Below, piece by piece: positions 19,949 through 33,565 of a stretch of DNA of 64,000 nucleotides. How positions within the stretch are numbered: position 1 is the stretch's first letter; every line of letters starts with the position of its first letter. The notes beneath the pieces were generated by a model. That model ran no database searches, was not told the origin of the DNA, and saw nothing but the letters and a program-made list of their open reading frames with translations. The translations under genes and the position numbers were made by a program. Source of the DNA: Deltaproteobacteria bacterium (GTDB lineage Bacteria; Desulfobacterota; Dissulfuribacteria; Dissulfuribacterales; DYLC01); assembly GCA_028695735.1 (NCBI GenBank), contig JAQVIJ010000005.1, positions 62,001 to 126,000 of the forward strand, written 5' to 3'.

Positions 19949-20827
19949 TTAGATGAATTGTTTTAACATATCTTGTGCCTTTTCATTTATGTCCGGCAGG
20001 GTGTTTAAGAGTTCTATATAGTTTTCCTCTGAAATATGCAACAGTGCTGCGACATCCTTGCATGAGGATGGAATGACGGCCGAAAGTTGAGTGGGTCTTG
20101 GGCCGTTTGTAGCTGTATCTGAATTGGATAGGTGTTCGGCCATTGCCACCAATCCTGTTTCAAGGATGTGTGTTGTTGCATTTTGCGGCTCATGATGTAG
20201 CAGAATAACTGCGGCAAAGACCTCAGGCATTCCCCATTTTTTTGCAAGGATATGGCCTACTTGGCAATGTGTGACACCAACGGCCTTCTCGGCCTCATAT
20301 ATGCCTGCATGGGGTTTTGACAGAGTCTTTTCGAACAGATCCGGAAGATATACGGCCATGGCAAGGCGGCCGATATCGTGTAACAGCCCCAGGATATACA
20401 TCTCTTCTCGAGGAATGGTGGGGGCGTATCTCCTGGCCAGTTCGGCGCTGAGCATTGCAGTGAGAATGGAGTGATGCCAGAAGGATTTGTTGCTAAAGGA
20501 TGGCGCTGTTTTTTTATTGCGGAATTGCTGGAGCAGCGCTACTGTCAGGCAGATGTTTTGAATCTCCCTTGTGCCAAGTACGAGGATAGCCTTTTTGATG
20601 TCATGAATGCCGCCTCTCACGCCATAAAAGGAGCTGTTGGCAAAGCGAAGCACCTGTGAGGACAGGCCAGGGTCTGCTTGCAGCAGCTCTTCTATCTGCC
20701 TGATGTCGCTGTCCGTATTGCGCATCAACGAGAGGATGCGGCAGAGGTTGGGATTGGGGCTGGGCAGCCATTCCAGTTGTGGAATGAGGTCTCTCAAGGC
20801 TTGTGTGTTGAGTTCGTTTGTCGGCAT
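19949..20827 (-). CDS. HDOD domain signalling protein
   Basis: 292 aa. An HDOD domain fills residues ~15-210: QLEWLPSPNPNLCRILSLM, then a metal-less HD-like core with ILGLLHDIGRLAMAVYLPDL and VTHCQVGHILAKKWGMP. HDOD proteins act as scaffolds in stress, chemotaxis and second-messenger signalling, usually without hydrolase activity. The ATG at 20827 is preferred because GAGGA sits 5 nt upstream; the in-frame ATG 12 bp earlier has none. It is the first gene of the operon with the hybrid kinase and cmk. Confidence 0.88.
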   Translation of the reverse strand: MPTNELNTQALRDLIPQLEWLPSPNPNLCRILSLMRNTDSDIRQIEELLQADPGLSSQVLRFANSSFYGVRGGIHDIKKAILVLGTREIQNICLTVALLQQFRNKKTAPSFSNKSFWHHSILTAMLSAELARRYAPTIPREEMYILGLLHDIGRLAMAVYLPDLFEKTLSKPHAGIYEAEKAVGVTHCQVGHILAKKWGMPEVFAAVILLHHEPQNATTHILETGLVAMAEHLSNSDTATNGPRPTQLSAVIPSSCKDVAALLHISEENYIELLNTLPDINEKAQDMLKQFI

Positions 20828-21189
20828 ATCATTCCTCATGAGGTGTCAGGCCGTATAAATTTGGGCTTCCTTCCTCCCTTGACAAGGGGAGGGGTGGTAG
20901 GGGTTCTCTCGCATCGGATACAAAAGATGGTTCAATCAGGATATTTGACATTATTTAATATTATTATCACGTGAGGTGGGTTTTGAAAACAACTTTTGAG
21001 GATAAGATTCAAATTTCGCTCAAACCAAACCGAAGACAATTTACAACTCAGCCAAGGCGTTATTGTTTTTATGGCAAATTTAATCACGGAATATAGGTCT
21101 TAACTTCTTGACAAGATGTTTGTTTTGTAATAAAGGTATCATCACCGTTTGTATTTTGCGTTAAATAAATCCTTAAAGGAGGGATTTCA
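20828..21189. other. Divergent intergenic region with palindrome and promoter
   Basis: A gene-free stretch between the HDOD gene and the DUF3373 porin-like gene. It holds a GC-rich palindrome at 20871-20895 and, near the right end, TTGACA at 21108-21113, a plausible -35 box. Candidate -10 sequences (TAATAA, TAAAGG) are poor, so an activator may be needed. AAAGGAGGG at 21175-21183 is a strong ribosome site for the next gene. I see no riboswitch or small ORF. Confidence 0.45.
20871..20895. repeat. Short GC-rich palindrome
   Basis: The sequence CCTCCCTTGACAAGGGGAGG is a near-perfect inverted repeat. It is a form of intergenic palindrome common in many bacterial genomes. Without a T-tract it is unlikely to be a terminator. 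Confidence 0.5.
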
Positions 21190-22977
21190 ATGAAGAAAAT
21201 TTGGCTTGGTTTAGTGGCTGGTACATTTCTGTTGCCGGCTCCCATGCAGGCGATAGCTGCACCGCCCACAGCGGATCAGCTGGCTGCGCAGGTCGAAGCG
21301 CTCACAAAGCAGCTTGAGAGTCTTAAGCAGCAGATGGCTGAGGTCAAGGCCGCTCAGGACAAGACCTCTTCCACTGTGGAGTCTGTTTCCGAAAAGGTGG
21401 AAAAGTCTGCTAAATCCTTAAAGAGCAACCTGGAGTTTTCTGGAGACTATCGTTTCAGGGTCGATTCAACTCGTGCCCATGTAACCAACTATTGGAACCA
21501 GATGGATGTGCTCACCGCATCCAACACTATGACTCAATGGAATTCAGCCCAATTGGGCCAGAATCTGATGCCCATGATGGCCATGTTTCCTCCTGCCCTT
21601 CAGCAGCAGCTTGGTGGCGTGATGCAGCAGTGGGATTCCATGTCCCAGCAGCAGCGGTTTGCGGTTTTGAACGGCATGATGGGCGCCCTCACCGAGCAGC
21701 AGCGCGCGGCCATGATGAACATGTTCGGTGCCGAGATGCAGAAGTCCTACAAGACGCAGAATGACCTGCTCTACACCAACAGGCTGCGTCTGAACATGAA
21801 CGCCAAGCCCACCGAGAATGTGGAATTCAAGGGTCGTCTTGCCATGTATAAGATATGGGGAATGGAGTCTGCTGAAGCAACTGCGGTGCCTTTCGGCATG
21901 AATGGCTTTTTGTACGACCCCAATATCACCCGTCGTCCCAACGACAACACCGTTCGTGTGGAGATGGCCTATGTGAGCTGGACCGATATCGGCGGCCTGC
22001 CCATCTGGTTTTCTGTTGGCCGTCGCCCCACAGCAGATGGCCCGCCACTCAACCTAAAATACAACTATGACAAGCGCTATGCCACGCCTGTTGCACTTGG
22101 TGTGGACTGGACATTCGACGGTCTGACCCTGGGTTATGCGTACTCCGATCCTGTTCCAGGCAAGGCGCGTATCTGTTACGGCCGCGGTTATGAGGCCGGT
22201 TTTGCCAATATCCCCAATACGCCTTCCCTGAACGATACAGACCTCTACGGTCTGAGCTGGGATATCATTGATGACAAGAGCCAGAACCTCTTTGCCAATG
22301 TGCAGCTCTTCAAGGCAGCTGATGTGCCAAACTATATGGAGATGAGGCCCATAAACTTCCCCATGTTGGTGGACCCGGGTCAGCCTCTCCCCATCAACGA
22401 TCCTTTGATGTCCACTGCCTACAAGGGCTATCAGGTGGGTGACATCTATCACCTGAGCGGTGTATTCATGCACAAGCTCATGGGCATAGATTACTTCCTG
22501 AGCGCAGGTCTGAGCCGCACCGACAACCGTTTCGTGGATCACTATGGTATGTATCCAGGCCTTTTGAATGCCCCTGGCGAGGATGAGAATCATTGGGGCT
22601 GGGCTGCCTTCCTGGGTGTACGCATTCCAGTGGAGCAGTTGAACAGCAAGATCGGTCTGGAATACAACCATGGCTCTCAGTACTGGATCAACTTCACGCC
22701 TGCTGCTGACGACCTCTACCTCTCCAAGCTGGCTACCCGTGGTGATGTGGCCGAGGTGTACTGGATATATGATATTCCTGACACCCCGCTTACCAAGTTC
22801 GGTAAGGCCTTTATTCGTGCCGGTTATCAGTACTACTGGATCGACTACACCAACAGCGGTAGCTGGATGGGCAAGCCTATCAAGATGGAGGATGCCAAGA
22901 GCGTGTTGAACGCACAGCAGTTTGCACCGGTGGATCGAATGAACAACTTCTATGCCACCTTCGAGGTCTTCTTCTAA
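21190..22977 (+). CDS. DUF3373-family outer membrane porin-like protein
   Basis: 595 aa with a Sec signal peptide (cleavage expected after AIAA near residue 28). Residues ~30-80 form a coiled coil (LAAQVEALTKQLESLKQQMAEV), a pattern of porins that tether to the periplasm. From ~85 on, alternating amphipathic strands end in FYATFEVFF with a terminal Phe, the outer-membrane insertion signal. A Met/Gln-rich insert lies near residues 130-180. It has its own ribosome site and a strong terminator at 23011, so it is monocistronic. DUF3373 proteins are abundant envelope proteins in Desulfobacterota and relatives; the transported substrate is unknown. Confidence 0.88.
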   Translation: MKKIWLGLVAGTFLLPAPMQAIAAPPTADQLAAQVEALTKQLESLKQQMAEVKAAQDKTSSTVESVSEKVEKSAKSLKSNLEFSGDYRFRVDSTRAHVTNYWNQMDVLTASNTMTQWNSAQLGQNLMPMMAMFPPALQQQLGGVMQQWDSMSQQQRFAVLNGMMGALTEQQRAAMMNMFGAEMQKSYKTQNDLLYTNRLRLNMNAKPTENVEFKGRLAMYKIWGMESAEATAVPFGMNGFLYDPNITRRPNDNTVRVEMAYVSWTDIGGLPIWFSVGRRPTADGPPLNLKYNYDKRYATPVALGVDWTFDGLTLGYAYSDPVPGKARICYGRGYEAGFANIPNTPSLNDTDLYGLSWDIIDDKSQNLFANVQLFKAADVPNYMEMRPINFPMLVDPGQPLPINDPLMSTAYKGYQVGDIYHLSGVFMHKLMGIDYFLSAGLSRTDNRFVDHYGMYPGLLNAPGEDENHWGWAAFLGVRIPVEQLNSKIGLEYNHGSQYWINFTPAADDLYLSKLATRGDVAEVYWIYDIPDTPLTKFGKAFIRAGYQYYWIDYTNSGSWMGKPIKMEDAKSVLNAQQFAPVDRMNNFYATFEVFF

Positions 22978-23010
22978 AGCATAAAGCTGTGGCATAATAC
23001 CTTGCTTACC

Positions 23011-23038
23011 AAAGGGGCTGGAGACAGCCCCTTTTTTT
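23011..23038 (+). terminator. Rho-independent terminator after DUF3373 gene
   Basis: A 10-bp perfect stem, AAAGGGGCTG paired with CAGCCCCTTT around a GAGA loop, runs into a T-tract. It is 33 bp past the stop codon. Confidence 0.9.
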
Positions 23039-23082
23039 GTGCCCGTTGTGTCTCTATGTCTCAGGTCATTGGCGTCTCGTCA

Positions 23083-23120
23083 TGATACACTTGAGACACA
23101 TTGATACACCATTGATACAA
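23083..23120. repeat. Cluster of phased TGATACAC repeats
   Basis: TGATACAC, TGAGACAC, TGATACAC and TGATACAA start at 23083, 23092, 23102 and 23113, about one DNA turn apart. A reversed copy TGTCTCA lies at 23058-23064. They sit between the DUF3373 terminator and the cydAB cluster, so a repressor or activator binding array for the oxidase genes is possible. Confidence 0.45.
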
Positions 23121-23236
23121 AAGGCATGAAAACGCAGGGCAGGGCATTGAACTTATCGTAAGAATATCAGATAGTTGTTTCTATATTACTTGGCATTGTC
23201 TTTGAATGTAAAGAACAGCAACAAGGTAGCGCTACG

Positions 23237-23283
23237 CCTCATTCTTCTATCCTCATTCATGCAAGCGATGAGGGAGAATGAGG
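23237..23283. repeat. Stem-loop upstream of the cydAB cluster
   Basis: CCTCATTCT and AGAATGAGG form the base of an imperfect stem, with CTCAT/ATGAG pairing inside. It follows a small palindrome TAGCGCTA at 23226-23233. No T-tract follows, so this may be a leader structure or a relic repeat rather than a terminator. Confidence 0.4.
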
Positions 23284-23410
23284 CTGGGGTCTCTCTTAGT
23301 TTGCGATGCAGGGTTTGGTAAGTCTTATTTCCCGCATACGGTTAAGGGAACAGGAAAGGTTGCTGTGCAGGCCATGTGCCTGTCCGTAAAACAACATGAC
23401 AGGATGGTTT

Positions 23411-23617
23411 ATGCCAACAGAGCAGGAACTTTTCAAAAAGGTATCGAGGCTGGTGACCGATATGATCATCCTGGCGGATGAGGGGGATGAGTTCTGCCAG
23501 CACGACAATTGTCATCTGCTTTTCAGTATCATTCGGGATTCGGCTTATCGCATTAAACAGGAGCTGGAACGGCAACAGCAGGTATCTCAACTATCTATTT
23601 CCTGCGGATGCCGTTAG
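23411..23617 (+). CDS. Small conserved-looking protein preceding cydAB, 68 aa
   Basis: Reads MPTEQELFKKVSRLVTDMI at the start, then acidic residues, FCQHDNCHLLFSIIRDSAYRI, a charged helix and a terminal CGC. I recall very similar short proteins in other Desulfobacterota, which supports a real gene. ATG 23411 follows AGGATGG and is preferred to ATG 23396. The paired acidic/cysteine/histidine residues could bind metal, but no function is known. It ends 45 bp before cydA on the same strand and is probably on the same transcript. Confidence 0.6.
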   Translation: MPTEQELFKKVSRLVTDMIILADEGDEFCQHDNCHLLFSIIRDSAYRIKQELERQQQVSQLSISCGCR

Positions 23618-23662
23618 CCCCTTTTTAAACACAAAATCTTTTATTTCAAGGAGGCAAGGCCT

Positions 23663-24964
23663 ATGGATGTCTTGATGTTGTCCAGGTTGCAGTTCGCTGT
23701 AGCCACTATGTTTCACTTTCTTTTCGTGCCCCTGACACTGGGGCTTTCCATCCTCACAGCCATCTATGAGACCATGTATGTCAAGACCGGCGACGAGGAT
23801 TACAAGCGGGCGGCCAAGTTTTGGGGTAAGCTTTTTCTCATAAACTTTGCCCTGGGTGTGGTGACCGGTATCACCCTTGAGTTTCAGTTCGGCACCAACT
23901 GGTCCAGTTATTCCAAGTATGTGGGTGATATCTTTGGTTCCCTTTTGGCCATTGAGGCCACCCTGGCCTTTTATTTAGAGTCCACCTTCATCGGTGTCTG
24001 GATCTTCACATGGAACAAGGTCAAGCCCAAGACACACGCCCTATTTATCTGGCTGGTGGCCATTGCATCCAATATCTCCGCCCTCTGGATTCTGATAGCC
24101 AATGGCTGGATGCAGCACCCTGTGGGATATACCATGCGAAACGGCCGAGCGGAGCTGGTGGATTTCTGGGCGGTTATTACCAATAAATTTGCGGTGTTGG
24201 AGTTTATGCACACCGTATCAGGCGCCTATATCCTTGCCGGGTTCTTTGTGATGGGGGTGTGCGGCTATCATCTGCTGCGGAAAAACGAGGTGCAGTTCTT
24301 CAAAAAGTCCTTCAATGTGGCCGTGACCTTTGCCCTGGTCTTTGCCCTTTTCGAGGCCTTTAACGGCCATCTGCATGGTGCAGAGGTGGCAGAGACTCAG
24401 CCTGCAAAGCTGGCAGCCATGGAGTCCCATTGGGAGACCGCCTCCAGTGTGCCCATGTATTTGTTGCAGATTCCTGATCCGGCCAATGAAAGAAACAGCG
24501 TGCAGGCCATTCCCATTCCAGGCATGTTGAGCATGTTGGCGCATCATGACCCATCGGCAACGGTCAAGGGTTTAAAGGACTTCCCTGCATCTGAAAGGCC
24601 ACCTGTAACCCTTACCTTCTGGTCATTCAGGCTCATGGTGGGCCTGGGCTTTCTCTTCATTCTCATAGCCGGGCTCGGCTGGCTCAAGCGAAACGACATT
24701 GAAAATCAGGCCGGCTTGCTCAAGCTCTTTATCTATGCCATACCATTGCCTTATCTGGCGTTGGAATTGGGTTGGGCTGTGGCTGAGGTGGGTCGTCAGC
24801 CCTGGATTGTCTATGGGCTCATGAAGACAGCGGATGCTGTTTCTATTCTGGATGTGAGCCAGGTGGCCATTTCTTTAACGGCCTTTGTGGTCTTTTATTC
24901 CATTCTTGGCCTGATTGATTTCTATCTCCTGTCCAAATATGCCCGTAAAGGGCCTGTACACTAA
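23663..24964 (+). CDS. cydA: Cytochrome bd quinol oxidase subunit I
   Basis: Oxidises quinol and reduces oxygen to water in the cytoplasmic membrane. His18 in MFHFLFVPLTLG is the expected heme ligand; the quinol-side motif GRQPWIVYGLM and about nine membrane segments are present. At 433 aa the quinol loop is short, as in the CioA/short-Q-loop group. CAAGGAGG precedes the ATG. It forms a pair with cydB 18 bp downstream. In an otherwise anaerobic-looking gene set it likely serves oxygen detoxification. Confidence 0.96.
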   Translation: MDVLMLSRLQFAVATMFHFLFVPLTLGLSILTAIYETMYVKTGDEDYKRAAKFWGKLFLINFALGVVTGITLEFQFGTNWSSYSKYVGDIFGSLLAIEATLAFYLESTFIGVWIFTWNKVKPKTHALFIWLVAIASNISALWILIANGWMQHPVGYTMRNGRAELVDFWAVITNKFAVLEFMHTVSGAYILAGFFVMGVCGYHLLRKNEVQFFKKSFNVAVTFALVFALFEAFNGHLHGAEVAETQPAKLAAMESHWETASSVPMYLLQIPDPANERNSVQAIPIPGMLSMLAHHDPSATVKGLKDFPASERPPVTLTFWSFRLMVGLGFLFILIAGLGWLKRNDIENQAGLLKLFIYAIPLPYLALELGWAVAEVGRQPWIVYGLMKTADAVSILDVSQVAISLTAFVVFYSILGLIDFYLLSKYARKGPVH

Positions 24965-24982
24965 AAAAGGAGGAATAACTCT

Positions 24983-26008
24983 ATGCTTGAGACCATTTGG
25001 TTTATACTTTGGGGTGTTTTGTGGGCTGTCTATTTCATGCTGGATGGATTTGACTTAGGGCTTGGAACACTGCTTCCTGTGCTTTCCAAGAACGAAACGG
25101 ATCGCCGCATCATCTATAACTCCATGGGGCCGTTTTGGGATGGCAATGAGGTCTGGCTCATCACCGCAGGTGGTGCCACCTTTGCAGCCTTTCCTGTGGC
25201 CTATGCGGTGATGTTCAATGGCCTGTATTCCGCACTGCTACTGCTGCTGTTTGCCTTGATCATTCGCGGGGTGTGCTTTGAGTTCAGAAACAAGATTGAC
25301 AGTGATGGTTGGCGCGGGTTGTGGGATGCGGCCATGGTGATCGGCAGCTTTTTGCCTGCCCTGCTTTTGGGTGTGGCCTTTGCCAATATCTTTGAAGGTC
25401 TGCCCATTGATCAAGACGGTGTGTTTCAGGGTGGTCTCTTTACCCTTCTAAACCCCTACGGCCTGGCAGGCGGCGTGCTCTTTGTCCTGCTCTTTTTAGT
25501 GCACGGAAGCCTGTGGTTGGCACTCAAATCAGAAGGGGCGCTGCAACAGAGGGCTGGCGCCATGGCCAAAAAGCTCTGGCCGGTGCTTCTGGTGGTAGCG
25601 GTCTTGTTTTTGGCCTTTACCTTGGTGGCCACAGACCTCTTCAATAACTACTTCAAAATGCCTGTGCTTTGGATTCTTCCCTTGATAGCCGTGCTCGCCC
25701 TGTTGGGGACCTTTGTGTTCATTCGACAGGCCGCCTGGCTCAAGGCCTGGCTGTCCTCGGCCGTGACCATTCTATTTGTGACATTCTTCGGTGTGGCAGG
25801 CCTTTTCCCCAGACTTTTGCCTTCAAGTCTCAATCCGGCCTATAGCATTACCATTCAAAATGGGGCTGCCAGCCAGTTGACCCTTAAGATCATGTTGGTG
25901 GTGGCATTGATTATGGTGCCCATCGTCATTGCATATCAACTGTGGGTGTATCTGTTCTTGGGAAATAAGGTGACAGAAAAGGACCTGGCCTATGAAGAGG
26001 CATATTGA
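24983..26008 (+). CDS. cydB: Cytochrome bd quinol oxidase subunit II
   Basis: 341 aa, about eight membrane segments. Diagnostic stretches are MLDGFDLGLGTLLP near the N terminus and GPFWDGNEVWLITAGG. AAAAAAGGAGG precedes the ATG. It partners CydA to form the heme-bearing oxidase. No cydX-like small gene or cydDC transporter was recognised nearby. Confidence 0.96.
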   Translation: MLETIWFILWGVLWAVYFMLDGFDLGLGTLLPVLSKNETDRRIIYNSMGPFWDGNEVWLITAGGATFAAFPVAYAVMFNGLYSALLLLLFALIIRGVCFEFRNKIDSDGWRGLWDAAMVIGSFLPALLLGVAFANIFEGLPIDQDGVFQGGLFTLLNPYGLAGGVLFVLLFLVHGSLWLALKSEGALQQRAGAMAKKLWPVLLVVAVLFLAFTLVATDLFNNYFKMPVLWILPLIAVLALLGTFVFIRQAAWLKAWLSSAVTILFVTFFGVAGLFPRLLPSSLNPAYSITIQNGAASQLTLKIMLVVALIMVPIVIAYQLWVYLFLGNKVTEKDLAYEEAY

Positions 26009-26083
26009 CAGACTTGTCTAAATATTTTTTTTATTAAATCTATCGAGATGTTCTCATAAATAAAACATAAGGAGGGTTTTGTT

Positions 26084-27028
26084 ATGTTCAAAGAAGGTGT
26101 GTCTGTTGGTTTGGGTGTGGGATTGGCATTGTTGGCATCTTCGGCTGTGGCGGGTCACTTTGATCAGTATGTAATGCCGGTCAGTAATCCCATCTATGAT
26201 GGCGATGCCCGAAATGTCACCATGGTGCGGCCTATTTATCTGCGTCAAAACCTGCCTGACAAGGTGGATACCATTGTGGGAAAGGTGCCTTTGGGTGGAT
26301 ATGTGAATGGTTTTGCCCTTCAGGCCAGCTATGCCATCAATGAGCGGATGTCCATAGTTGCAGTGAAAGACGGCTATGTGGATTGCAATCCTGACCACAC
26401 CTTAAACGACCATAACGGCTGGGCTGATATCGCTGCCGGGCTTCAGTATTCGTTTTTGTATATGCCCGAGCAGGATTTCATTTTGACAGGCCGTTTGGTG
26501 TACGAGAGCACTACTGGAAGCGATCAGGTCTTTCAGGGCAATGGAGATGGCAATATCAATCCCAGCATACTGTTTTTGAAGGGTTTTAATGGGTTTCAGT
26601 TCTCCGGCGCCCTTGGCCTGGTACTCCCCGTGGACAATGATGAGGAAAATACCCTGTTTTATGACTCCTGGCATGTGAGCTATGCAGTTACGCCCTGGTT
26701 CCATCCCCTGGTGGAACTCAATCATTTCCATGTGTTGAGTGCAGGGGACAGGGATGTGCCCAAGGCTGGCCTTGGCGCCATCGGTACCCATCAGGAGGAC
26801 GATCTGGTCGCTGGCATTGCCAAGTTCAATGGCTGTGATATCATCAATTTAGGTGGTAAGCACAGTGATGATAATAGAGACATGGTCACAATGGCTCTGG
26901 GTGCCCGTTTCAAGGTGAATCAGTGGGTGGATTTGGGTGCTGTCTATGAGTTTCCGCTTACGGATGATTCCAAAGGCCTGTTGCAGGATCGTCTGATGGT
27001 GGATGCCATGTTCACTCTTCGCTTCTAG
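26084..27028 (+). CDS. Predicted outer-membrane beta-barrel protein
   Basis: 314 aa with a signal peptide (GLALLASSAVA, cleavage near residue 23). The mature part alternates hydrophobic/polar residues in barrel strands, for example GFALQASYAINERMSIVAV and WHVSYAVTPWFHPLVEL, and ends in MFTLRF with a terminal Phe. An N-x-D-rich segment GNGDGNINPSILF and a DNDEEN loop could bind calcium. TAAGGAGGG lies 7 nt before the ATG. 75 bp follow cydB and a terminator follows the gene, so it could be the last gene of the cyd transcript. The substrate is unknown. Confidence 0.75.
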   Translation: MFKEGVSVGLGVGLALLASSAVAGHFDQYVMPVSNPIYDGDARNVTMVRPIYLRQNLPDKVDTIVGKVPLGGYVNGFALQASYAINERMSIVAVKDGYVDCNPDHTLNDHNGWADIAAGLQYSFLYMPEQDFILTGRLVYESTTGSDQVFQGNGDGNINPSILFLKGFNGFQFSGALGLVLPVDNDEENTLFYDSWHVSYAVTPWFHPLVELNHFHVLSAGDRDVPKAGLGAIGTHQEDDLVAGIAKFNGCDIINLGGKHSDDNRDMVTMALGARFKVNQWVDLGAVYEFPLTDDSKGLLQDRLMVDAMFTLRF

Positions 27029-27056
27029 TCTTAACCCGTTTGCGAAGTATTTTTTA

Positions 27057-27091
27057 GCGGGATACCCCCTGGTATTCCGCATTTTATTTTT
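27057..27091 (+). terminator. Strong hairpin terminator in front of the AAA ATPase gene
   Basis: GCGGGATACC pairs with GGTATTCCGC (one G-T wobble) around CCCT and runs into ATTTTATTTTT. It ends only 12 bp before the next ATG, and the following AGGAGG is the ribosome site of that gene. It therefore lies inside the leader of any read-through message. Confidence 0.8.
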
Positions 27092-27103
27092 AGGAGGTCC
27101 TTC

Positions 27104-29365
27104 ATGCGCTCCAATAAATTTTTGATCATGGGTTCCAATGCTCGCGTCACCAACCTTCCAGTCAAGGAGGTGAGCCTTCTGGCCCAGGGCAGTCTGCCTG
27201 CTTATGGCTATAATCCAGGGGACTTCATCGAACTCCTGGCCGGCAATGTCACAGTGGTGGAAGGCCGGGTGGAGGAGTGTATCACCTGGTTGTCATCCTT
27301 TTTGACCAATACAGAGCTGACCCCTGAGTTCAATACCGTTACCTATGGGGCACAAAAGGAGATATTTCAGATATTTAGAAAGACCTCCTTCAACGACACT
27401 CACGATGCAGGCCATGGCTGGTTTATGGTGCATCAGATCTTGCCGCCAGGAGGAAGGCATGCGGAGCCGGATACATTAGAGATTACGGATGAAAACAGGC
27501 ATAAATTTCAAAACAATAACGGCATCATCATAGTGGATGACGGTGGAAGCCCTCCAAAGGTGGCGGATCAATTGCGGGAATGGAACCCTGATGCCTGGGT
27601 GATTGCCCTTGGAATCAGCGCCGCCAAATGGGAGTGCTGGGCAGACCACTTCGGTGAGCGGTTTACGCTTTTTTGCAGGCGTTCTGACCTGGAGACCACG
27701 CGTATGGAGATGGACAGCGCTATTTTGTGGGAGACCGTTCTTGCCATGACCATCAGAGGGCTTAAGAATCCAGAGGTGGGGCTTTTTGACTTTATGACCA
27801 ATCGCTTTCGCTGCAATATCGTGGTGGAGATGTACCCAGGAGGTCTGCTTTTTATTACCCCTGAGCACATATTCTTTCGCCACAGAGAGGGCAGGGGGGT
27901 GAGGCCTGACAGGGGGGCTTCTCGAGAAAGAGGGTCTGTACCCTGTCATGATACCATGCCGGTGGCCATGCTGGCCATCGACAGCCTGCGTCTGGGCCAT
28001 GTGCCATCTAATCGTGAATATATCTTTGACTTCTCCAGGCGTGTGCTCACCAACTGGTTTCAGATATTTGATTACGGCTATTACTTTAGTGACAGCTTGG
28101 AGTTTCCCAATATAGACTTTAGAGAGACATATCCCAGCGGTGCCCCATGCAGTATGATTGACAGAGGGGATGACAATTACTTTTTTGAGCTGCCTCATAT
28201 CTCGTTGGAGTTGGATAAGACCCTGGAGCTCCTCTCCAGCCAGCAGTGGACTCCAGAACGAAAGGCTGCGCTCAGAAGTTTTCTGTCCCGCAAGACCTGG
28301 CTGTGCAGTATTCCTGAAAAGAAAAAGGGCATACATCCACCCTATTTCGATGTGATTCTGCGCATATTGGGGCATCTAAAGGACGAGGTAAACCGTAAAA
28401 ATGGTTTTAAAAAATTGCGCATGTTTCAGCTGGGCAATCTCAAGACCATAGACCCTGCGGAGATCGAGCCGGTGATCACCCTTTACAATGTCATAGACAG
28501 CTACATCACCAAGGAAAATTATAAGCGGCCTCTGTGTATCGGGGTGTTCGGCCCGCCTGGGTCAGGCAAGTCCTTTTCCGTGGAGGAGGTGGCACGAGTC
28601 ATATCCCACAGGTTTGCTGTCAATCCATTTGACTTCTTTCAGTTCAATCTGACGCAGTTTACAGGCCCTGAAGAGATAAACGCAGCCATTGACCTGGTCA
28701 GGGCGTCTGTGGCACGAGGCAAGATACCCATCGCCTTCTGGGACGAGTTTGACTGCCGTTATGCCGGAGATGAGTTCGGCTATCTGCGCTATTTTCTGCC
28801 TGCTATGCAGGATGGCGTGACCTATGTCCATGGCACACCGCGCTATATCGGCAGGTCCATCTTTGTGTTTGCAGGCGGAGTAAAGTCCTCCTGGAACGAT
28901 ATGATGGATATTCTGGAAAAGAGTGACGCAGAGACCCTGCAAATGGTGAAGACCCTCAAGATCCCTGACTTCATGAGCAGACTTAGAGTGGTTTTGGACA
29001 TAGACGGCATAGAGATACCGGATCGCCTGCTGCGGGATTCCTCCACGCCAGAGGAATTGGAGGAGCTGGAGCGCATTCTGATGAAGCGCGCCCTCATCAT
29101 AGCGCACCAGATGAACAGCCACTGGAAAAAGGCGGCCAGAAAGACATCAGGCCTGCTTTTACGCCTGCTGTTGGCTGATTATAAATTCGGCGCCCGTTCC
29201 ATGGAGGCGGTGATAGAGACCAGCCAGGTGGCTGACAAGTTGGTTTACGGCCTGCCTGAGCTCATTCCTCCTCCTGCGGCCCGCATACACGCCCAGTGGC
29301 GCGTGGATCTGGAGCGCAGAGTGGATGCAGTGCGAAAGGAGTTAGGGTTGCGGGGAGTCTGGTAG
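27104..29365 (+). CDS. Large AAA ATPase with unusual N-terminal half
   Basis: 753 aa, cytoplasmic. The C-terminal half is an AAA-type ATPase: Walker A GPPGSGKS (residues 483-490), Walker B IAFWDEFD (Asp547, Glu548), a sensor-1-like FVFAGGVKSSW and a sensor-2-like GARS at 696-699. The N-terminal half has no simple motif; phrases such as NNGIIIVDDGGSPP, VIALGISAAKWECWADHF and DSAILWETVLAM resemble, from memory, a ribokinase-like domain found with RyR-domain ATPases in proposed bacterial conflict systems. That link is low-confidence inference. No partner gene is adjacent: cydAB and a porin lie upstream, biotin genes converge downstream. AGGAGG lies 9 nt before the ATG. Confidence 0.7.
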   Translation: MRSNKFLIMGSNARVTNLPVKEVSLLAQGSLPAYGYNPGDFIELLAGNVTVVEGRVEECITWLSSFLTNTELTPEFNTVTYGAQKEIFQIFRKTSFNDTHDAGHGWFMVHQILPPGGRHAEPDTLEITDENRHKFQNNNGIIIVDDGGSPPKVADQLREWNPDAWVIALGISAAKWECWADHFGERFTLFCRRSDLETTRMEMDSAILWETVLAMTIRGLKNPEVGLFDFMTNRFRCNIVVEMYPGGLLFITPEHIFFRHREGRGVRPDRGASRERGSVPCHDTMPVAMLAIDSLRLGHVPSNREYIFDFSRRVLTNWFQIFDYGYYFSDSLEFPNIDFRETYPSGAPCSMIDRGDDNYFFELPHISLELDKTLELLSSQQWTPERKAALRSFLSRKTWLCSIPEKKKGIHPPYFDVILRILGHLKDEVNRKNGFKKLRMFQLGNLKTIDPAEIEPVITLYNVIDSYITKENYKRPLCIGVFGPPGSGKSFSVEEVARVISHRFAVNPFDFFQFNLTQFTGPEEINAAIDLVRASVARGKIPIAFWDEFDCRYAGDEFGYLRYFLPAMQDGVTYVHGTPRYIGRSIFVFAGGVKSSWNDMMDILEKSDAETLQMVKTLKIPDFMSRLRVVLDIDGIEIPDRLLRDSSTPEELEELERILMKRALIIAHQMNSHWKKAARKTSGLLLRLLLADYKFGARSMEAVIETSQVADKLVYGLPELIPPPAARIHAQWRVDLERRVDAVRKELGLRGVW

Positions 29366-29371
29366 CCGACC

Positions 29372-30292
29372 TTATTCCTTAAAGAGTGTGCAGATAACAA
29401 CCTGATAACTGGCGCAAATAGCCTTGTGGTGCTTGAGATATGCCTGTTCTATGCGTTTAAGGCCTTGACTGCTCATGTGCAGAATCTCTCTGTGGCCTGG
29501 CCTTGGTTTGTAGGCACCAAGCCCCTGATTCGCCCTTTCAAAGGCGCGGGCATTGGCCGAGACACCTGTGAGCTTCAGTGTCTTGAGCAGGTGCAACAGA
29601 TTGTCATATCTCCGAGTGATCATCACCTCTTTCATGCGCACAGAAGGCGATATGCTGCATAAAATGGAGTAAAGCCTTTCCCTGCTCAAAAAGCCTGTTG
29701 CAGCCAGGTGCTGGGCGTCAAAACCTGCCTCATGCAGGGCAGTTTGAAGCTCTTTCAGGCTTTGGGGCCCAAAAAAGGAGAAGTGGAGTATGCCATGGCC
29801 TGCCAGCAGGTCGTAGGCGGCCCTGATGGACCTTTCTGGTGTCTGAAACCATTGAAATGTGCTGTTGGAGGTGATGAGGCCAAATCGTGTTTTGGCACAA
29901 GAGAATGGAAGCTCCTCACCATCTGCACATAAAAAGGCGATATTTGTAGGGGCAAGCGGCGCATGAACGGCCTGGGAGAGTGCCTGAAACGATGATCTCA
30001 GGCTGTTTTGGGCCTGTTTTATCATGTCAAAGGAGATGTCCAGGGCTGTAAGCCTGTATTCACGGCTGCCAAGGGAATGCTTGAGGTATTCCATGAGTAG
30101 GGCGGTATAGCACCCTGTGCCACAGCCGATTTCCAAGATATGAAGCGGACTCCTTGAGGAAGGCATGGAAGGGAGCTCAGCCAGCAGCAGGTGCGCCACC
30201 TCTCGCTGCACCGAGGCCCATGAGTCATAGCTGTGTGCTGCCCGAGAAAATGAGTCACAGATGGCCTGTTTCAAGATGTCTTGCCTCTTCAA
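29372..30292 (-). CDS. bioC: Malonyl-ACP O-methyltransferase BioC
   Basis: Methylates malonyl-ACP to start pimelate synthesis for biotin. It has N-terminal FSRAAHSYDSWASVQREVA, AdoMet motif ILEIGCGTGCYTALLM near residue 55 and the substrate motif SNSTFQWFQTPERS. 306 aa is somewhat long for BioC. It is the last gene of a minus-strand set with a bioH-like gene (9 bp gap) and bioF, which supports the assignment over other class I methyltransferases. The opposite-strand AAA gene ends 6 bp away. Confidence 0.88.
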   Translation of the reverse strand: MKRQDILKQAICDSFSRAAHSYDSWASVQREVAHLLLAELPSMPSSRSPLHILEIGCGTGCYTALLMEYLKHSLGSREYRLTALDISFDMIKQAQNSLRSSFQALSQAVHAPLAPTNIAFLCADGEELPFSCAKTRFGLITSNSTFQWFQTPERSIRAAYDLLAGHGILHFSFFGPQSLKELQTALHEAGFDAQHLAATGFLSRERLYSILCSISPSVRMKEVMITRRYDNLLHLLKTLKLTGVSANARAFERANQGLGAYKPRPGHREILHMSSQGLKRIEQAYLKHHKAICASYQVVICTLFKE

Positions 30293-30300
30293 AGCCGTTT

Positions 30301-30987
30301 TTAATCTTTGCTCAAAAAGCGCTGCATTATTTGGCTAAAATCCTGGTGTAGAAACGGAAGATGCCCTGTGTTCAATATGGCTACCTCAGTGCCCTCAGGG
30401 CATTTGGGTATGCGATGGAGTGGAACGATGATGTCCTTTAAGCCATGGCATAACAGGAGCTCTTGAGGCTGAATGCCCTCTATTCTTGCCGAGTGAGACG
30501 CAAGGTAGTTCAACCCCCAAATTATATCTTGAAGTCGCGCTCGTTGCAAAAATCTGGGTTGCAGGGTCTGGCAGAACCAGGAATAGGCCTCCTGCTGGCC
30601 GATAAAACACCTCTTGTAGAGGTGTCGCAGGTAGCTATTTAGGTCCTTTTCTGCGGCCTGAATCTGCATTTCTATCTCATGCGTTGCAAAGGAGTCCCTC
30701 ACTGCCACCAACACCAGCTTATGAATTCTGTGCGGCAGTTGTTCCTTGAGTTTAAGTGCCAGTAGGCCGCCCAATGACCAGCCCATTACATGGCATTTCA
30801 GTCCTTCTTGATTCAAAAGCCCTGCCATGGTCTCGAGCATCCCTGAATGGGGTGCAGTTGGCAAATAGATAAGTCGCCTGTGACCAAAAGAAGGCGGTTG
30901 AACGAGGCCCAGGCCGTTCATTTCCAGAAAGATCTCAGGGCCGAAACCCAGGCCAGGTATGAGGAGCAGGGGGAGGTCAGAGGACAT
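30301..30987 (-). CDS. Alpha/beta hydrolase, BioH-like pimeloyl-ACP esterase
   Basis: 228 aa with the oxyanion phrase LLLIPGLGFGPEIF, nucleophile Ser in GWSLGG, Asp in CHGLKDIIVP and His in NTGHLPF, a complete Ser-Asp-His triad. Its position between bioF (10-bp overlap) and bioC points to hydrolysis of the methyl ester that BioC places on pimeloyl-ACP. BioH, BioG and BioK-type esterases are unrelated enough that I leave the symbol blank. Confidence 0.82.
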   Translation of the reverse strand: MSSDLPLLLIPGLGFGPEIFLEMNGLGLVQPPSFGHRRLIYLPTAPHSGMLETMAGLLNQEGLKCHVMGWSLGGLLALKLKEQLPHRIHKLVLVAVRDSFATHEIEMQIQAAEKDLNSYLRHLYKRCFIGQQEAYSWFCQTLQPRFLQRARLQDIIWGLNYLASHSARIEGIQPQELLLCHGLKDIIVPLHRIPKCPEGTEVAILNTGHLPFLHQDFSQIMQRFLSKD

Positions 30988-32149
30988 CTTTTAGTGCGGC
31001 TACCAGGGCACGAATGTCTTTTGGGGTATGCAAGGCCGTTAGGGAGATGCGCAGCCTGGAGGTCCCCTTGGCCACGGTGGGTGGACGAATGGCCTTTACA
31101 TAAAAACCTCGCTCAAAAAGCCCCTGCGCGGCCTTGAGAGAGGGTTCTTCTGCGCCGATTATGATGGGCAAAATCTGGGAAGAACTAAAGGTCTCAATAC
31201 CCAGTTCATTTGCCAGCAGTTGCGATAACAGGGCGATATTGCTGTGAATGAGGCTGCGCCGTTTTTGAAGGTGAGGCATGAGTTCCAGGGCTGCCAGATT
31301 GGCCCCCACTACGCCAGGTGGCAGGGCGGTGGAGAATATGAAGGATCTGGCATGGTTGATCAACTGGTCTTTGATGGCATGGGAACAGGCTGCAAAGGCA
31401 CCGAAGCTGCCAAATGCCTTGCCAAAGGTGCCGATGAGCACATCCACTTCAGGGGCAGCCTGTACATGAACTAACCCTTCCCCTTTTTCCCCGAACACGC
31501 CCAGGGCATGGGCCTCGTCTAAAAACAGGTGGACATCATAGCGTCTTTTGAGGCTCAAAAGCGTCTCCCAAGGCGCCATGTCGCCGTCCATGCTGTAAAG
31601 GGTCTCTGCCACAATCCAGGCCTTTTTAGCAGAGGGTCTGTGTGAGGCAAGCAGCTCTTCTAAGTGCGCCATGTCGTTGTGCCGAAAGCGATACAGCCTG
31701 GCACGAGAAAGGAGTATTCCATCTATGATGCTTGCGTGCACCAATCTATCTGCAAAGACGAGGTCATTTCTGCTGACCAGTGCTGAAATGACGCCTGTGT
31801 TGGCCAGATAGCCCGCACCAAAGAGCAGGGCCGCCTCAGTGCCCTTGAAGGCGGCCAGCTTGGCCTCCAATTCGTGATGAAGCCCGGTATCTCCGCTCAT
31901 GAGCCTGGAGCCTGTGGCGCCCACACCCCAACGCCCCATGGTCTCAATAGCCGCCTGCATCAAACGGGTGTCCTGTGCCAGACCTAAGTAGTCATTGGAG
32001 GAGAAGTCAATGAGCTCACGGCCTGTTATGGAGATGAGTTGAGGGCGGTTCAGCGTCGTGTCCATCTCCTTCCTTAAGCAGGTATCACACGAGGGCTGAA
32101 GGGCTATTTTGAGGGGCCCTTTGGGTTCAAGGGTGCGTTTTGTGGGCAT
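30977..32149 (-). CDS. bioF: 8-amino-7-oxononanoate synthase
   Basis: PLP enzyme joining pimeloyl-ACP/CoA with alanine. It has SNDYLGLAQ, GATGSRLMSGDTGLHHELE, the DEAHALGVFGEKGEG loop and the PLP lysine in GTFGKAFGSFGAF. I use ATG 32149, giving 390 aa, which fits the family; an in-frame ATG at 32203 adds 18 residues with no ribosome site, so the start is unsettled. First of three biotin genes here; bioA, bioD and bioB are not in the window. Confidence 0.9.
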   Translation of the reverse strand: MPTKRTLEPKGPLKIALQPSCDTCLRKEMDTTLNRPQLISITGRELIDFSSNDYLGLAQDTRLMQAAIETMGRWGVGATGSRLMSGDTGLHHELEAKLAAFKGTEAALLFGAGYLANTGVISALVSRNDLVFADRLVHASIIDGILLSRARLYRFRHNDMAHLEELLASHRPSAKKAWIVAETLYSMDGDMAPWETLLSLKRRYDVHLFLDEAHALGVFGEKGEGLVHVQAAPEVDVLIGTFGKAFGSFGAFAACSHAIKDQLINHARSFIFSTALPPGVVGANLAALELMPHLQKRRSLIHSNIALLSQLLANELGIETFSSSQILPIIIGAEEPSLKAAQGLFERGFYVKAIRPPTVAKGTSRLRISLTALHTPKDIRALVAALKDVL

Positions 32150-32225
32150 GGTGCGAGCTTTAGTCTTTTGAATGGCTGATTTGTAGAGGCATGGCAGCGC
32201 CATTCAAACAGGCATCGAGTGGTAT

Positions 32226-33365
32226 TTAATCGTGTTTTAATGGCCAGTAGATAGTAAATGTGCTGCCCTTGCCAGGCTGGCTCTTTACATCTATGAGGCC
32301 TTTATTGCTATAGACGATTCCATAGACCATGGCAAGCCCTAACCCTGTGGCCTGGCCCATGGGCTTGGTGGTGAAAAATGGTTCAAAGATGCGAGAGATG
32401 AGCTCTGGTTCCATGCCCCTTCCTGTGTCTGTTACAGTGAGTTTCATATACCTGCCTGGTGGAACGCATGGGCAGGGGGCATCAGCTTGTGAGTTTTGAT
32501 TCGTGGAGGCTGGAATGGTCAGATATTCCGTTGTGATGAGCAGTTGTTTGTTGGGCATGTCATTCATGGCCTCACATGCATTTTGTGCGAGATTTAGAAC
32601 GATTTGCTCCAAATCCCCTGGTTTTATGAGCACAGGCGGCAGGTCTGGATCGAGCCTTAACTCCAAGGCGACCCCGTGAGTCTTTGCTAGTTCATGCAGG
32701 GCGGTAAGGCCATTGAGATAGCCATTGACATTCATGGGAAAGGAGGCTGCATGGCACTGTTCTGTGCTGAAGGCCATGAGTTTGTCTATTAAGGAAAGGG
32801 CCTGTTCACACCCCTGCTCCATGCGATTTAGATGGGGTGTGATTTGAGGGGTTTCATGGCGTCGCATCAATTCTATACTGCCTTTGACGCAGGTCAGGAT
32901 GTTGTTGAAGTTGTGTGCAATTCCGTTTACTAACTGGCCTATAGCGGCAAGTTTGCTGGCCTCCAGCAGCCTGGCCTGAAGGGCAGCGTTTTCAGCCTCC
33001 ATGCGTTTTCGTGTGCTGATGTCGCGAAAGATGCCCACAGTGGAGAGAATCCGTCCATCTTTTTCTTTATTGAGGCTGAGATTGCCTTCCACCCAGACGG
33101 TGCGTCCTGTTTTGGAGATAAAGCGTGTCTCCACCTTGCCCAATACCTTGCCGGACATCAGCTCATGAAAGGCGAGATTGCAGTGCTCCCGCTCTTCTGG
33201 ATGTATGATGTCCATGTATGTAAGGCCTGGGAGTTCGTTTGCGGTGTATTCCAAGGTTCGGAGCCAGGCCGGATTCACATAGGCAAAGGTGCCATCGTTT
33301 TTGACGCATTGAATCAGGTCGTTGGCGTTTTCGAAGATGGTTTCGTAATGTATGGTATGCATCAT
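32226..33365 (-). CDS. PAS-domain sensor histidine kinase
   Basis: 379 aa, soluble. A PAS/PAC domain (~5-120) opens with IFENANDLIQCVKNDGTFAYVNPAW. HisKA has His151 in NGIAHNFNNIL (Asn instead of the usual Asp after His), and HATPase motifs are QNACEAM, DTGRGMEPELISRIFEPFFTT and GLGLAMVYGI. It lacks a receiver domain, and no response regulator gene is adjacent, so it is an orphan. It lies upstream of bioF on the same strand, 76 bp away; any link to biotin is doubtful. Confidence 0.92.
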   Translation of the reverse strand: MMHTIHYETIFENANDLIQCVKNDGTFAYVNPAWLRTLEYTANELPGLTYMDIIHPEEREHCNLAFHELMSGKVLGKVETRFISKTGRTVWVEGNLSLNKEKDGRILSTVGIFRDISTRKRMEAENAALQARLLEASKLAAIGQLVNGIAHNFNNILTCVKGSIELMRRHETPQITPHLNRMEQGCEQALSLIDKLMAFSTEQCHAASFPMNVNGYLNGLTALHELAKTHGVALELRLDPDLPPVLIKPGDLEQIVLNLAQNACEAMNDMPNKQLLITTEYLTIPASTNQNSQADAPCPCVPPGRYMKLTVTDTGRGMEPELISRIFEPFFTTKPMGQATGLGLAMVYGIVYSNKGLIDVKSQPGKGSTFTIYWPLKHD

Positions 33366-33497
33366 AAGATATTTTCCGTTGGAATATTTCCCATTGGGAT
33401 TTTAGCTGATTATGGGTTATCAGGGAATATAATTGATTTGGTTGTTACATTTTTCATTATAATTGAAAGGTCAGAAAAATAAAGGAGGAAGTTTGGC

Positions 33498-33535
33498 AAA
33501 AAAAGCGCCGCTGGTATCGAAACCTGCGGCGCTTT
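33498..33535 (-). terminator. Rho-independent terminator of the C25 peptidase gene
   Basis: AAAGCGCCGC and GCGGCGCTTT form a perfect 10-bp stem. Read on the minus strand the second arm runs into seven T residues, 30 bp beyond the stop codon of the peptidase gene. Confidence 0.9.
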
Positions 33536-33565
33536 GTAATTCAATTGTAATGTCCTCAGTCGCTG

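What the first reader, a model, noticed from the sequence alone, without database searches (positions are those of the whole stretch)
27104..29365. Large AAA ATPase with an uncharacterised N-terminal half
Walker A, Walker B and a GARS sensor-2 motif are clear, yet the first ~430 residues carry no recognised domain. Remembered similarity to ribokinase-like/RyR-associated ATPases of proposed conflict systems would make it a candidate defence or stress component. It has no obvious operon partner.
Basis: partly seen in the sequence, partly recalled or inferred. Interest (0 to 1): 0.55.

Follow-up and report, generated by a model that had tools for sequence, protein, structure and literature searches.

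The report
Clp-like ATPase beside oxygen-reductase genes
This gene makes a two-part protein, a sugar-kinase-shaped half joined to a protein-remodelling motor, whose distant cousins sit next to bacterial immune genes but whose own close relatives often sit next to the enzymes that anaerobic bacteria use to remove oxygen, which suggests a defence-type machine re-used for coping with oxygen.

Summary
The ORF (27104-29365, 753 aa) and its AAA motifs are real and invariant in 29 aligned orthologues. Pfam sees nothing in the N-terminal half, but its predicted fold is a complete ribokinase/PfkB fold. The AAA half resembles Clp/HslU/Lon motors. Distant paralogues share both halves, and 7 of 9 scanned carry a C-terminal RyR domain; several lie beside TIR, NB-ARC/NACHT or SIR2 genes. 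The window protein has no RyR domain, and its orthologues form one separate clade with no recurring defence neighbour.

"No operon partner" is wrong. In the window the gene follows cydAB (cytochrome bd). In another order, 37 of 63 genomes with both genes placed have cydA within 2 kb on the same strand, in five families and both arrangements. In nine further genomes the gene lies 95-266 bp upstream of a COX1 (cbb3-type) oxidase gene instead. Orthologues also persist where neither oxidase was found (17 of 109).

Best reading: a Clp-like remodeller with a sensor domain, recruited from a conflict-type family into an oxygen-reductase/oxygen-response module. Architecture and linkage are shown here; client, ligand and activity are inferred. 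A defence role is not supported.

The parts
27104..29365 (+). AAA+ ATPase gene, 753 aa; N-terminal ribokinase-like domain plus Clp-like AAA+ motor, no RyR domain
27104..28192 (+). Ribokinase/PfkB-fold domain (residues 1-363); invariant D283 lies where the catalytic Asp of GAGD would be by spacing, but GAG is not conserved (P-x-x-D)
   Evidence: fold; sequence
28193..28423 (+). Linker, residues 364-440, holding the least conserved stretch (blocks 376-400 and 401-425 mean 0.57 and 0.52)
28424..29242 (+). AAA+ motor, residues 441-713, shared with RyR-type ATPases
28550..28573 (+). Walker A, GPPGSGKS, residues 483-490
28655..28663 (+). Putative pore loop 1, Q518-F519-T520, aligned with the aromatic pore loop of the order's HslU/ClpX set; aromatic at 519 in 14 of 15 rows including paralogues
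28730..28747 (+). Walker B, residues 543-548 (D547, E548)
28979..28981 (+). R626, candidate arginine finger (PDFMSRLR)
   Evidence: role inferred
29189..29200 (+). Sensor 2, GARS, residues 696-699
23663..24964 (+). cydA, cytochrome bd oxidase subunit I (433 aa)
24983..26008 (+). cydB, cytochrome bd oxidase subunit II
26084..27028 (+). Porin-like gene (weak Phenol_MetA_deg match, under the curated cut-off); a relative lies between cydB and the ATPase in L075
27057..27080 (+). Terminator-like hairpin (10 pairs, then ATTTTATTTT) between the porin-like gene and the ATPase; possible attenuator
   Evidence: function inferred
27093..27098 (+). Ribosome-binding site AGGAGG

Best explanation
The gene encodes an AAA+ protein-remodelling ATPase of the Clp/HslU/Lon type. 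A ribokinase-fold N-terminal domain, probably a ligand-binding sensor rather than a working kinase, is fused to a motor with a ClpX-like pore loop, a candidate arginine finger and a GAR sensor 2. It descends from the same family as the RyR-domain ATPases found beside TIR, STAND and SIR2 genes, but in this lineage it lacks RyR. It has become part of an oxygen-handling module with terminal oxygen reductases (cytochrome bd or cbb3), in several genomes next to an Rrf2 regulator with three conserved cysteines. I propose that it is expressed with the oxidase and uses ATP to remodel or clear a client in that module (oxidase subunits or oxygen-damaged proteins), gated by a small ligand in the ribokinase-like pocket. 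Shown here: architecture, homology, clade, gene linkage. Inferred: ring assembly, threading, ligand, client, co-expression.
For: N-terminal fold: Foldseek's leading PDB matches are ribokinase-family kinases (best E 5e-7, prob 1.00); VIA Z 16.5, rmsd 4.4, 267 aligned, residues 1-363. Same family as RyR ATPases: hhalign of the N-terminal halves, probability 95.4, E 2e-8; AAA halves about 30% identical with shared invariant motifs. Motor type: profile match to Lon (E 1.2e-10, 205 columns) and HslU/ClpX (E 1.9e-7, 238 columns, pore loop and GAR aligned), against FtsH over 67 columns only; ClpX leads the structural list, though only at Z 7.7 on a weak model. Oxidase linkage: cydAB upstream in the window; in another order 37 of 63 genomes with both genes placed have cydA within 2 kb, 37 of 37 on the same strand, in 5 of 8 families (chance expectation 0.04 genomes); 9 of 26 orthologue genomes with a COX1 match have it 95-266 bp downstream, same strand, with COX1/CcoN and FixO/CcoO-type domains confirmed where scanned. 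In the window's order 3 of 28 genomes with both are linked. Rrf2 with C-x6-C-x5-C in 9 of 9 sequences from these clusters. Tightest spacing: ATPase about 10 bp before cydA in L016, and about 50 bp after cydB in L048.
Against: Presence of the ATPase does not track presence of cydA in the second order: 79 both, 30 ATPase only, 107 cydA only, 26 neither; odds ratio 0.64, p 0.17. By comparing the lists, 17 of 109 orthologue genomes show neither cydA (E up to 1e-100) nor COX1 (E up to 1e-60), though many are incomplete. Family f71 has 0 of 17 linked, f83 0 of 2, f118 0 of 1; the window's order has only 3 of 28. A terminator-like hairpin lies before the ATPase in the window and stable hairpins in L014, L083 and L084, so co-transcription is not certain there. 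The AAA model is weak (mean pLDDT 63; no Foldseek hit at E 0.001 or better). The sensor-1 region reads AGG rather than ending in the usual polar residue (recalled norm), so ATPase activity needs testing.
Confidence: 0.5

Rival explanations
1. It is a dedicated assembly or cofactor-insertion chaperone for terminal oxidases, working like the MoxR-type ATPase NorQ does for nitric oxide reductase.
For: Tight same-strand linkage to two structurally unrelated oxidases. An AAA+ ATPase needed for cofactor insertion into nitric oxide reductase is known (NorQ/NorD, PMC9976466, start of abstract seen in the listing).
Against: 17 of 109 orthologue genomes show neither oxidase at the cut-offs used. cydA is common without the ATPase (107 of 242 genomes). 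No VWA partner was found among the ten window genes scanned. The motor is Clp/HslU/Lon-like by profile; the Pfam bpMoxR match is below cut-off.
Confidence: 0.22
2. It is still an anti-phage or conflict ATPase that kept its defence role without RyR, and its place beside oxidases is incidental.
For: Family relation to RyR ATPases that neighbour TIR, NB-ARC/NACHT, SIR2 and, below cut-off, SLATT genes.
Against: Single separate clade with strong conservation; no match in 50,697 phage records; only two distant matches in plasmids; no PADLOC family in more than 2 of 119 neighbouring proteins; repeated oxidase linkage in five families.
Confidence: 0.07
3. The N-terminal half is an active small-molecule kinase and the protein is a metabolic enzyme with an ATPase-driven regulator.
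For: Complete ribokinase fold; D283 is invariant in 29 of 29 and falls where the catalytic Asp is expected by spacing.
Against: The GAG of GAGD is replaced by P-x-x before that Asp; none of the ten aligned paralogues has the GAGD motif there (by eye); PF00294 does not match at E 0.1; the profile match to true PfkB kinases of the order is negligible (probability 0.4).
Confidence: 0.07

Closest known systems
Bacterial RyR-domain AAA ATPases (for example WP_264051538.1, 'RyR domain-containing protein', plasmid of Methylobacterium sp. FF17)
   Same: Both halves are homologous: ribokinase-like N-terminus and AAA motor about 30% identical.
   Different: No C-terminal RyR domain, no recurring TIR/STAND/SIR2 neighbours, separate clade, oxidase linkage.
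ClpX/HslU/Lon AAA+ unfoldases
   Same: Walker motifs, aromatic pore loop, GAR sensor 2; best profile and structure matches.
   Different: Ribokinase-like N-domain; no protease domain matched in Pfam; sensor-1 region reads AGG.
Ribokinase/PfkB family
   Same: Fold of residues 1-363.
   Different: Not recognised by PF00294; GAGD motif not conserved.
NorQ/NorD and other MoxR-type chaperones
   Same: AAA+ ATPase serving a respiratory oxidoreductase (analogy; PMC9976466, start of abstract seen).
   Different: Different AAA type by profile, no VWA partner in the ten window genes scanned, partners include cytochrome bd, which is not a heme-copper enzyme.

Membership tests
RyR-type conflict ATPases | Ribokinase-like N-terminal half homologous to theirs | tested here: met
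   hhalign probability 95.4, E 2e-8
RyR-type conflict ATPases | Shared AAA motor | tested here: met
   15-row alignment, K489, D547, E548 and R626 invariant
RyR-type conflict ATPases | C-terminal RyR domain (present in 7 of 9 distant family proteins scanned) | tested here: not met
   no RyR match in the window protein at E 0.1; paralogues (L096 and L033 also lack it)
RyR-type conflict ATPases | Conflict genes as neighbours (TIR, STAND, SIR2, SLATT) | tested here: not met
   for orthologues; for paralogues (both SLATT matches are below Pfam's cut-off)
Clp/HslU/Lon (HCLR) AAA+ clade | Profile similarity over the whole AAA module, including sensor 2 | tested here: met
   clade name recalled
Clp/HslU/Lon (HCLR) AAA+ clade | Structural similarity of the motor | tested here: inconclusive
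   ClpX best, Z 7.7, rmsd 5.3, 216 aligned, on a model with mean pLDDT 63
Clp/HslU/Lon (HCLR) AAA+ clade | Hexamer and threading activity | not testable with these tools
   needs biochemistry
Ribokinase/PfkB kinases | Fold | tested here: met
   Z 16.5, rmsd 4.4, 267 aligned
Ribokinase/PfkB kinases | Family profile PF00294 | tested here: not met
   no match at E 0.1; PfkB genes found in nine genomes of the order score up to 164.5 bits
Ribokinase/PfkB kinases | GAGD anion hole and catalytic Asp | tested here: inconclusive
   D283 29 of 29, but GAG absent; the position rests on spacing and profile alignment, not on a superposed structure
MoxR/NorQ chaperones | MoxR profile above cut-off | tested here: not met
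   bpMoxR 19.8 bits against a cut-off of 27
MoxR/NorQ chaperones | VWA-domain partner gene | tested here: inconclusive
   none in the ten window genes scanned; only the first 25 of 170 families were listed for other loci
Known anti-phage systems in PADLOC | Match to a PADLOC model | tested here: not met
   only mad8 at E 0.04, AAA part

The most novel reading that the evidence does not exclude
A conflict-type AAA+ machine has been recruited as a general partner of oxygen reductases in anaerobes: a ligand-gated, Clp-like unfoldase that serves cytochrome bd and cbb3 alike, staying at its locus while the oxidase beside it changes type. That would be an oxidase-type-independent quality-control or switch-off device for oxygen consumption.
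Probability: 0.3. Interest if true: 0.75.

Novelty: new variant of a known kind. Interest (0 to 1): 0.58.

Why it matters
It links two subjects not usually joined: AAA ATPases of the RyR/conflict type and oxygen defence in sulfur-cycling anaerobes. If the linkage reflects function, these bacteria hold an unstudied ATP-driven factor that works with oxygen reductases of two unrelated folds, and a ready case of a defence-type protein re-used for housekeeping. It also marks the RyR-ATPase/TIR/STAND loci as a candidate defence system: PADLOC (2023) gave 5 of 6 RyR ATPases tested no match at E 0.001, the sixth a weak mad8 match.

Tried and rejected
Rejected: a defence role for the window gene (see rivals). 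Rejected: strict dependence on cytochrome bd. Co-occurrence looked strong in the window's order (28 both, 1 ATPase only, 6 cydA only, 11 neither, counted by eye with cydA E below 1e-100, and driven largely by one family that lacks both), but it failed in the larger order (odds ratio 0.64, p 0.17).

Led nowhere: Rfam scan of window 20000-34000, no match. Phage collection, no match. Viral contigs gave one distant relative, L131, found again as L132; two more viral scans gave none. Literature: ten searches turned up, in the titles, abstract starts and passages that I saw, no description of this ATPase or of its oxidase linkage; only open-licence papers are held. The paper I recall as describing prokaryotic RyR conflict systems (10.1093/nar/gkv1267) is not held, nor is 10.1128/JB.00365-20, so that resemblance rests on recall plus my own domain searches. 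PMC7159879 was searched for RyR, ryanodine and ribokinase: no occurrence (abstract seen). PMC7016017 passages were not relevant.

Limits: one search does not list all cydA places, so 16 of the 79 genomes with both genes could not be tested for distance and were left out of the 63. The 2-kb chance figure treats genomes as independent, which they are not; five families are the safer count. Of 58 papers found I saw 12, of 37 I saw 15, of 25 I saw 20. The ORF caller in my scripts is a longest-ORF heuristic, so small genes can be missed and gene starts are approximate. Neighbour families show only the 25 commonest (of 84 and 170). Sixteen linked loci (12 bd, 4 cbb3) were held as sequence; the other linkages are coordinates only. 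One 2654-aa neighbour (L083) was skipped in the 119-protein set.

Mistakes: searches failed on wrong frames and were redone with corrected coordinates (with another choice of rows). Alignment A4 contains one row too long and was not used for any conclusion. In L012 the frame is broken between about 2051 and 2115; it was left out of A1 and of the tree, and only its intact downstream part was used in A6.

Full report
What is there. The window holds one intact 753-codon ORF at 27104-29365 on the + strand. A ribosome-binding site, AGGAGG, lies just ahead of the ATG. Relatives came from 31 loci of a collection of 84,980 species genomes: 29 matched over nearly the whole protein, two are contig-end fragments, and one of the 29 (L012) has a broken frame. 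The other 28 plus the window were aligned: 58-68% identity to the window protein and 76% mean column identity.

The N-terminal half. Pfam, NCBIfam and PADLOC recognise nothing there. The AlphaFold model built from the 29 rows has mostly good confidence over residues 1-395, apart from some loops, and poor confidence in the AAA half. Foldseek against the PDB returned ribokinase-family kinases in all 50 listed rows (best E 5e-7). VIA-align gave Z 16.5 (rmsd 4.4, 267 aligned) to tagatose-6-phosphate kinase, spanning residues 1-363, with pseudouridine kinase equal. The kinase signature is largely lost: PF00294 does not match at E 0.1, while PfkB genes in nine genomes of the order score up to 164.5 bits. 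An invariant D283 sits where the catalytic Asp should be by spacing, but the preceding GAG is replaced. I read the domain as a probable ligand sensor; activity is not excluded.

The AAA half. A profile of 15 AAA regions, four orthologues and eleven distant relatives, was compared with AAA proteins from the same order. The best match is Lon (E 1.2e-10, 205 columns), then HslU/ClpX (E 1.9e-7, 238 columns), ClpA (3.1e-7, 209 columns) and ClpB (1.7e-5, 166 columns). FtsH gave E 4.6e-7 but over only 67 columns. The HslU/ClpX alignment places the invariant F519 at the aromatic pore loop and GARS at the GAR sensor 2. A second structure model, of this half alone, is weak (mean pLDDT 63). Its Foldseek hits do not reach E 0.001, and ClpX leads the VIA list at Z 7.7, so the clade rests mainly on the profile result.

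Family. Two plasmid genes match the AAA half at about 30%; one of them is annotated as an RyR protein. In 395 genomes of the phylum 31 match: 23 are orthologues (57% identity or more, two of them partial) and 8 are distant. A ninth distant one lies in a genome that also has an orthologue (G018). Of nine distant proteins scanned with Pfam, seven carry RyR (L091, L092, L093, L095, L097, L099, L034) and two do not (L096, L033); L094 and L098 were not scanned. Their neighbours include TIR-NB-ARC-WD40 (L097), TIR-TPR (L092), a ThsB-like TIR (L095), NACHT-WD40-DUF4062 (L099), a 1728-aa WD40 protein (L093), SIR2 (L034), separate RyR proteins (L094, L097), and sub-threshold SLATT matches (L091, L095). 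Their N-terminal halves are homologous to that of the window protein (hhalign probability 95.4, E 2e-8). A tree of 57 proteins puts 48 orthologues in one clade, separated by a very long branch from nine distant ones. The tree program warns about long branches among the distant rows, so their order is unsure, but the split itself is fully supported.

Neighbourhood. In the window the order is cydA, cydB, a porin-like gene, ATPase, all on one strand, then convergent biotin genes. Across 17 lineage groups, cydA and cydB are the most widespread neighbour clusters within 6 kb, in 5 groups. A histidine kinase cluster also reaches 5, but that cluster lumps a large superfamily. I then examined another order (242 genomes, centred on G388). 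The tool does not name it; in the tree loci titled Desulfobulbaceae lie among its members, hence my label Desulfobulbales-like. There 109 have an orthologue and 186 have cydA. Of 63 genomes with both genes placed in the lists, 37 have cydA within 2 kb of the ATPase, all 37 on the same strand. By family: f105 21 of 23, f25 10 of 13, f113 3 of 4, f112 2 of 2, f121 1 of 1, f71 0 of 17, f83 0 of 2, f118 0 of 1. In f105, f25 and one f113 genome cydA is upstream; in f112, two f113 genomes and f121 it is downstream. In the window's own order 3 of 28 genomes with both are linked: the window, G031 and G032, with cydA ending 2.1, 3.7 and 1.1 kb upstream (read by eye).

The swap. In four genomes without cydA that I fetched (G451, G445, G464, G436), an Rrf2 gene abuts or nearly abuts the ATPase (gaps of 15, 8 and 8 bp, and a 4-bp overlap, by ORF prediction). 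The next oxidase gene was scanned in three of them and is a COX1/CcoN-type subunit; the FixO/CcoO-type gene after it was scanned in two. A search for COX1 over the 242 genomes found it in 26 orthologue genomes. In nine it lies 95-266 bp downstream of the ATPase, same strand (f112 three, f113 three, f121 three). Three of these nine (G461, G463, G478) also have cydA elsewhere in the genome. The ATPase thus keeps company with an oxygen reductase although the enzyme type changes. The Rrf2 proteins of the bd and cbb3 clusters share three cysteines, C-x6-C-x5-C, in 9 of 9, as expected of an iron-sulfur sensor (recalled knowledge of IscR/NsrR).

Against a simple story. Presence of the ATPase does not correlate with cydA in the larger order, and 17 of 109 orthologue genomes show neither oxidase at the cut-offs used. 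Some lineages have no linkage at all. Other close same-strand neighbours vary: an NADH-dehydrogenase/hydrogenase-type small subunit 6 bp downstream in L025, a peroxiredoxin upstream in L018, a PAP2 gene downstream in L077, a DUF3124 gene upstream in L013. So the protein is not bound to one enzyme. A wider oxygen or redox response fits better than a dedicated maturation factor.

How it probably works. From the anatomy I propose a ring ATPase that threads or remodels a client, gated by a ligand in the kinase-like pocket, made together with the oxygen reductase. Anaerobes are thought to use cytochrome bd for oxygen detoxification (stated in PMC7478628 on Dissulfurirhabdus thermomarina, passages seen). 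The closest precedent is NorQ, an AAA+ ATPase needed for cofactor insertion into nitric oxide reductase (PMC9976466, start of abstract seen), but that is a MoxR protein with a VWA partner. In cable bacteria the closed genomes of one study lack a complete bd-II oxidase and one species encodes a cytochrome c oxidase (PMC10030654, passages seen). This may bear on genus g294, three complete genomes of which have several ATPase copies, a COX1 and no cydA found; that these are cable bacteria is my guess.

Novelty. PMC5322542, on bd oxidase gene clusters in proteobacteria, holds no occurrence of 'ATPase', 'DUF4492' or 'accessory' in its main text. Ten literature searches showed no report of this linkage in what I saw (listed under Tried and rejected). 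I call it a new variant of a known kind: a known domain family in a reduced architecture and a new setting.

Noticed in passing
L014 7718-7989, L083 8761-9133, L084 4887-5136: An unannotated ORF of about 30 codons for a single hydrophobic segment ending in K-x-x-LL lies between the cyd genes and the ATPase in all three; it looks like a CydX-type small oxidase subunit. None was found after cydB in the window.
   Followed up: partly
window 27057-27080: Terminator-like hairpin in the 75-bp gap before the ATPase; stable hairpins also occur ahead of the ATPase in L014, L083 and L084. Possible attenuation.
   Followed up: partly
L097 3257-9333, L092 8549-13576, L095 6435-11712, L099 3685-11592, L034 3-9368: RyR-type ATPases beside TIR-NB-ARC-WD40, TIR-TPR, ThsB-like TIR, NACHT-WD40 or SIR2 genes: a candidate defence system. 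Five of six RyR ATPases had no PADLOC match at E 0.001, the sixth a weak mad8 match.
   Followed up: partly
L213-L217 (G542, G559), G562: Genus g294 of family f25 has two or three copies of the orthologue per single-contig genome, with extra residues near the linker, one COX1 gene and no cydA found.
   Followed up: no
G034-G043 (family f10 of the window's order): Ten genomes lack both the ATPase and full-length cydA, while their family mate G033 has both.
   Followed up: no
L012 2051-2115; G510:C88, G457:C45: Broken frame in L012 and single in-frame TAG codons in two other orthologues; may be sequencing errors.
   Followed up: no
window 33566-36379 -: 937-aa protein with a peptidase family C25 domain.
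   Followed up: no
window 29372-32203 -: Biotin genes: bioC-like, bioH-like and bioF, convergent with the ATPase, 6 bp between the ends.
   Followed up: no
L131 8231-11125: A 964-aa distant relative of the ATPase on a 117-kb contig of the viral collection.
   Followed up: no
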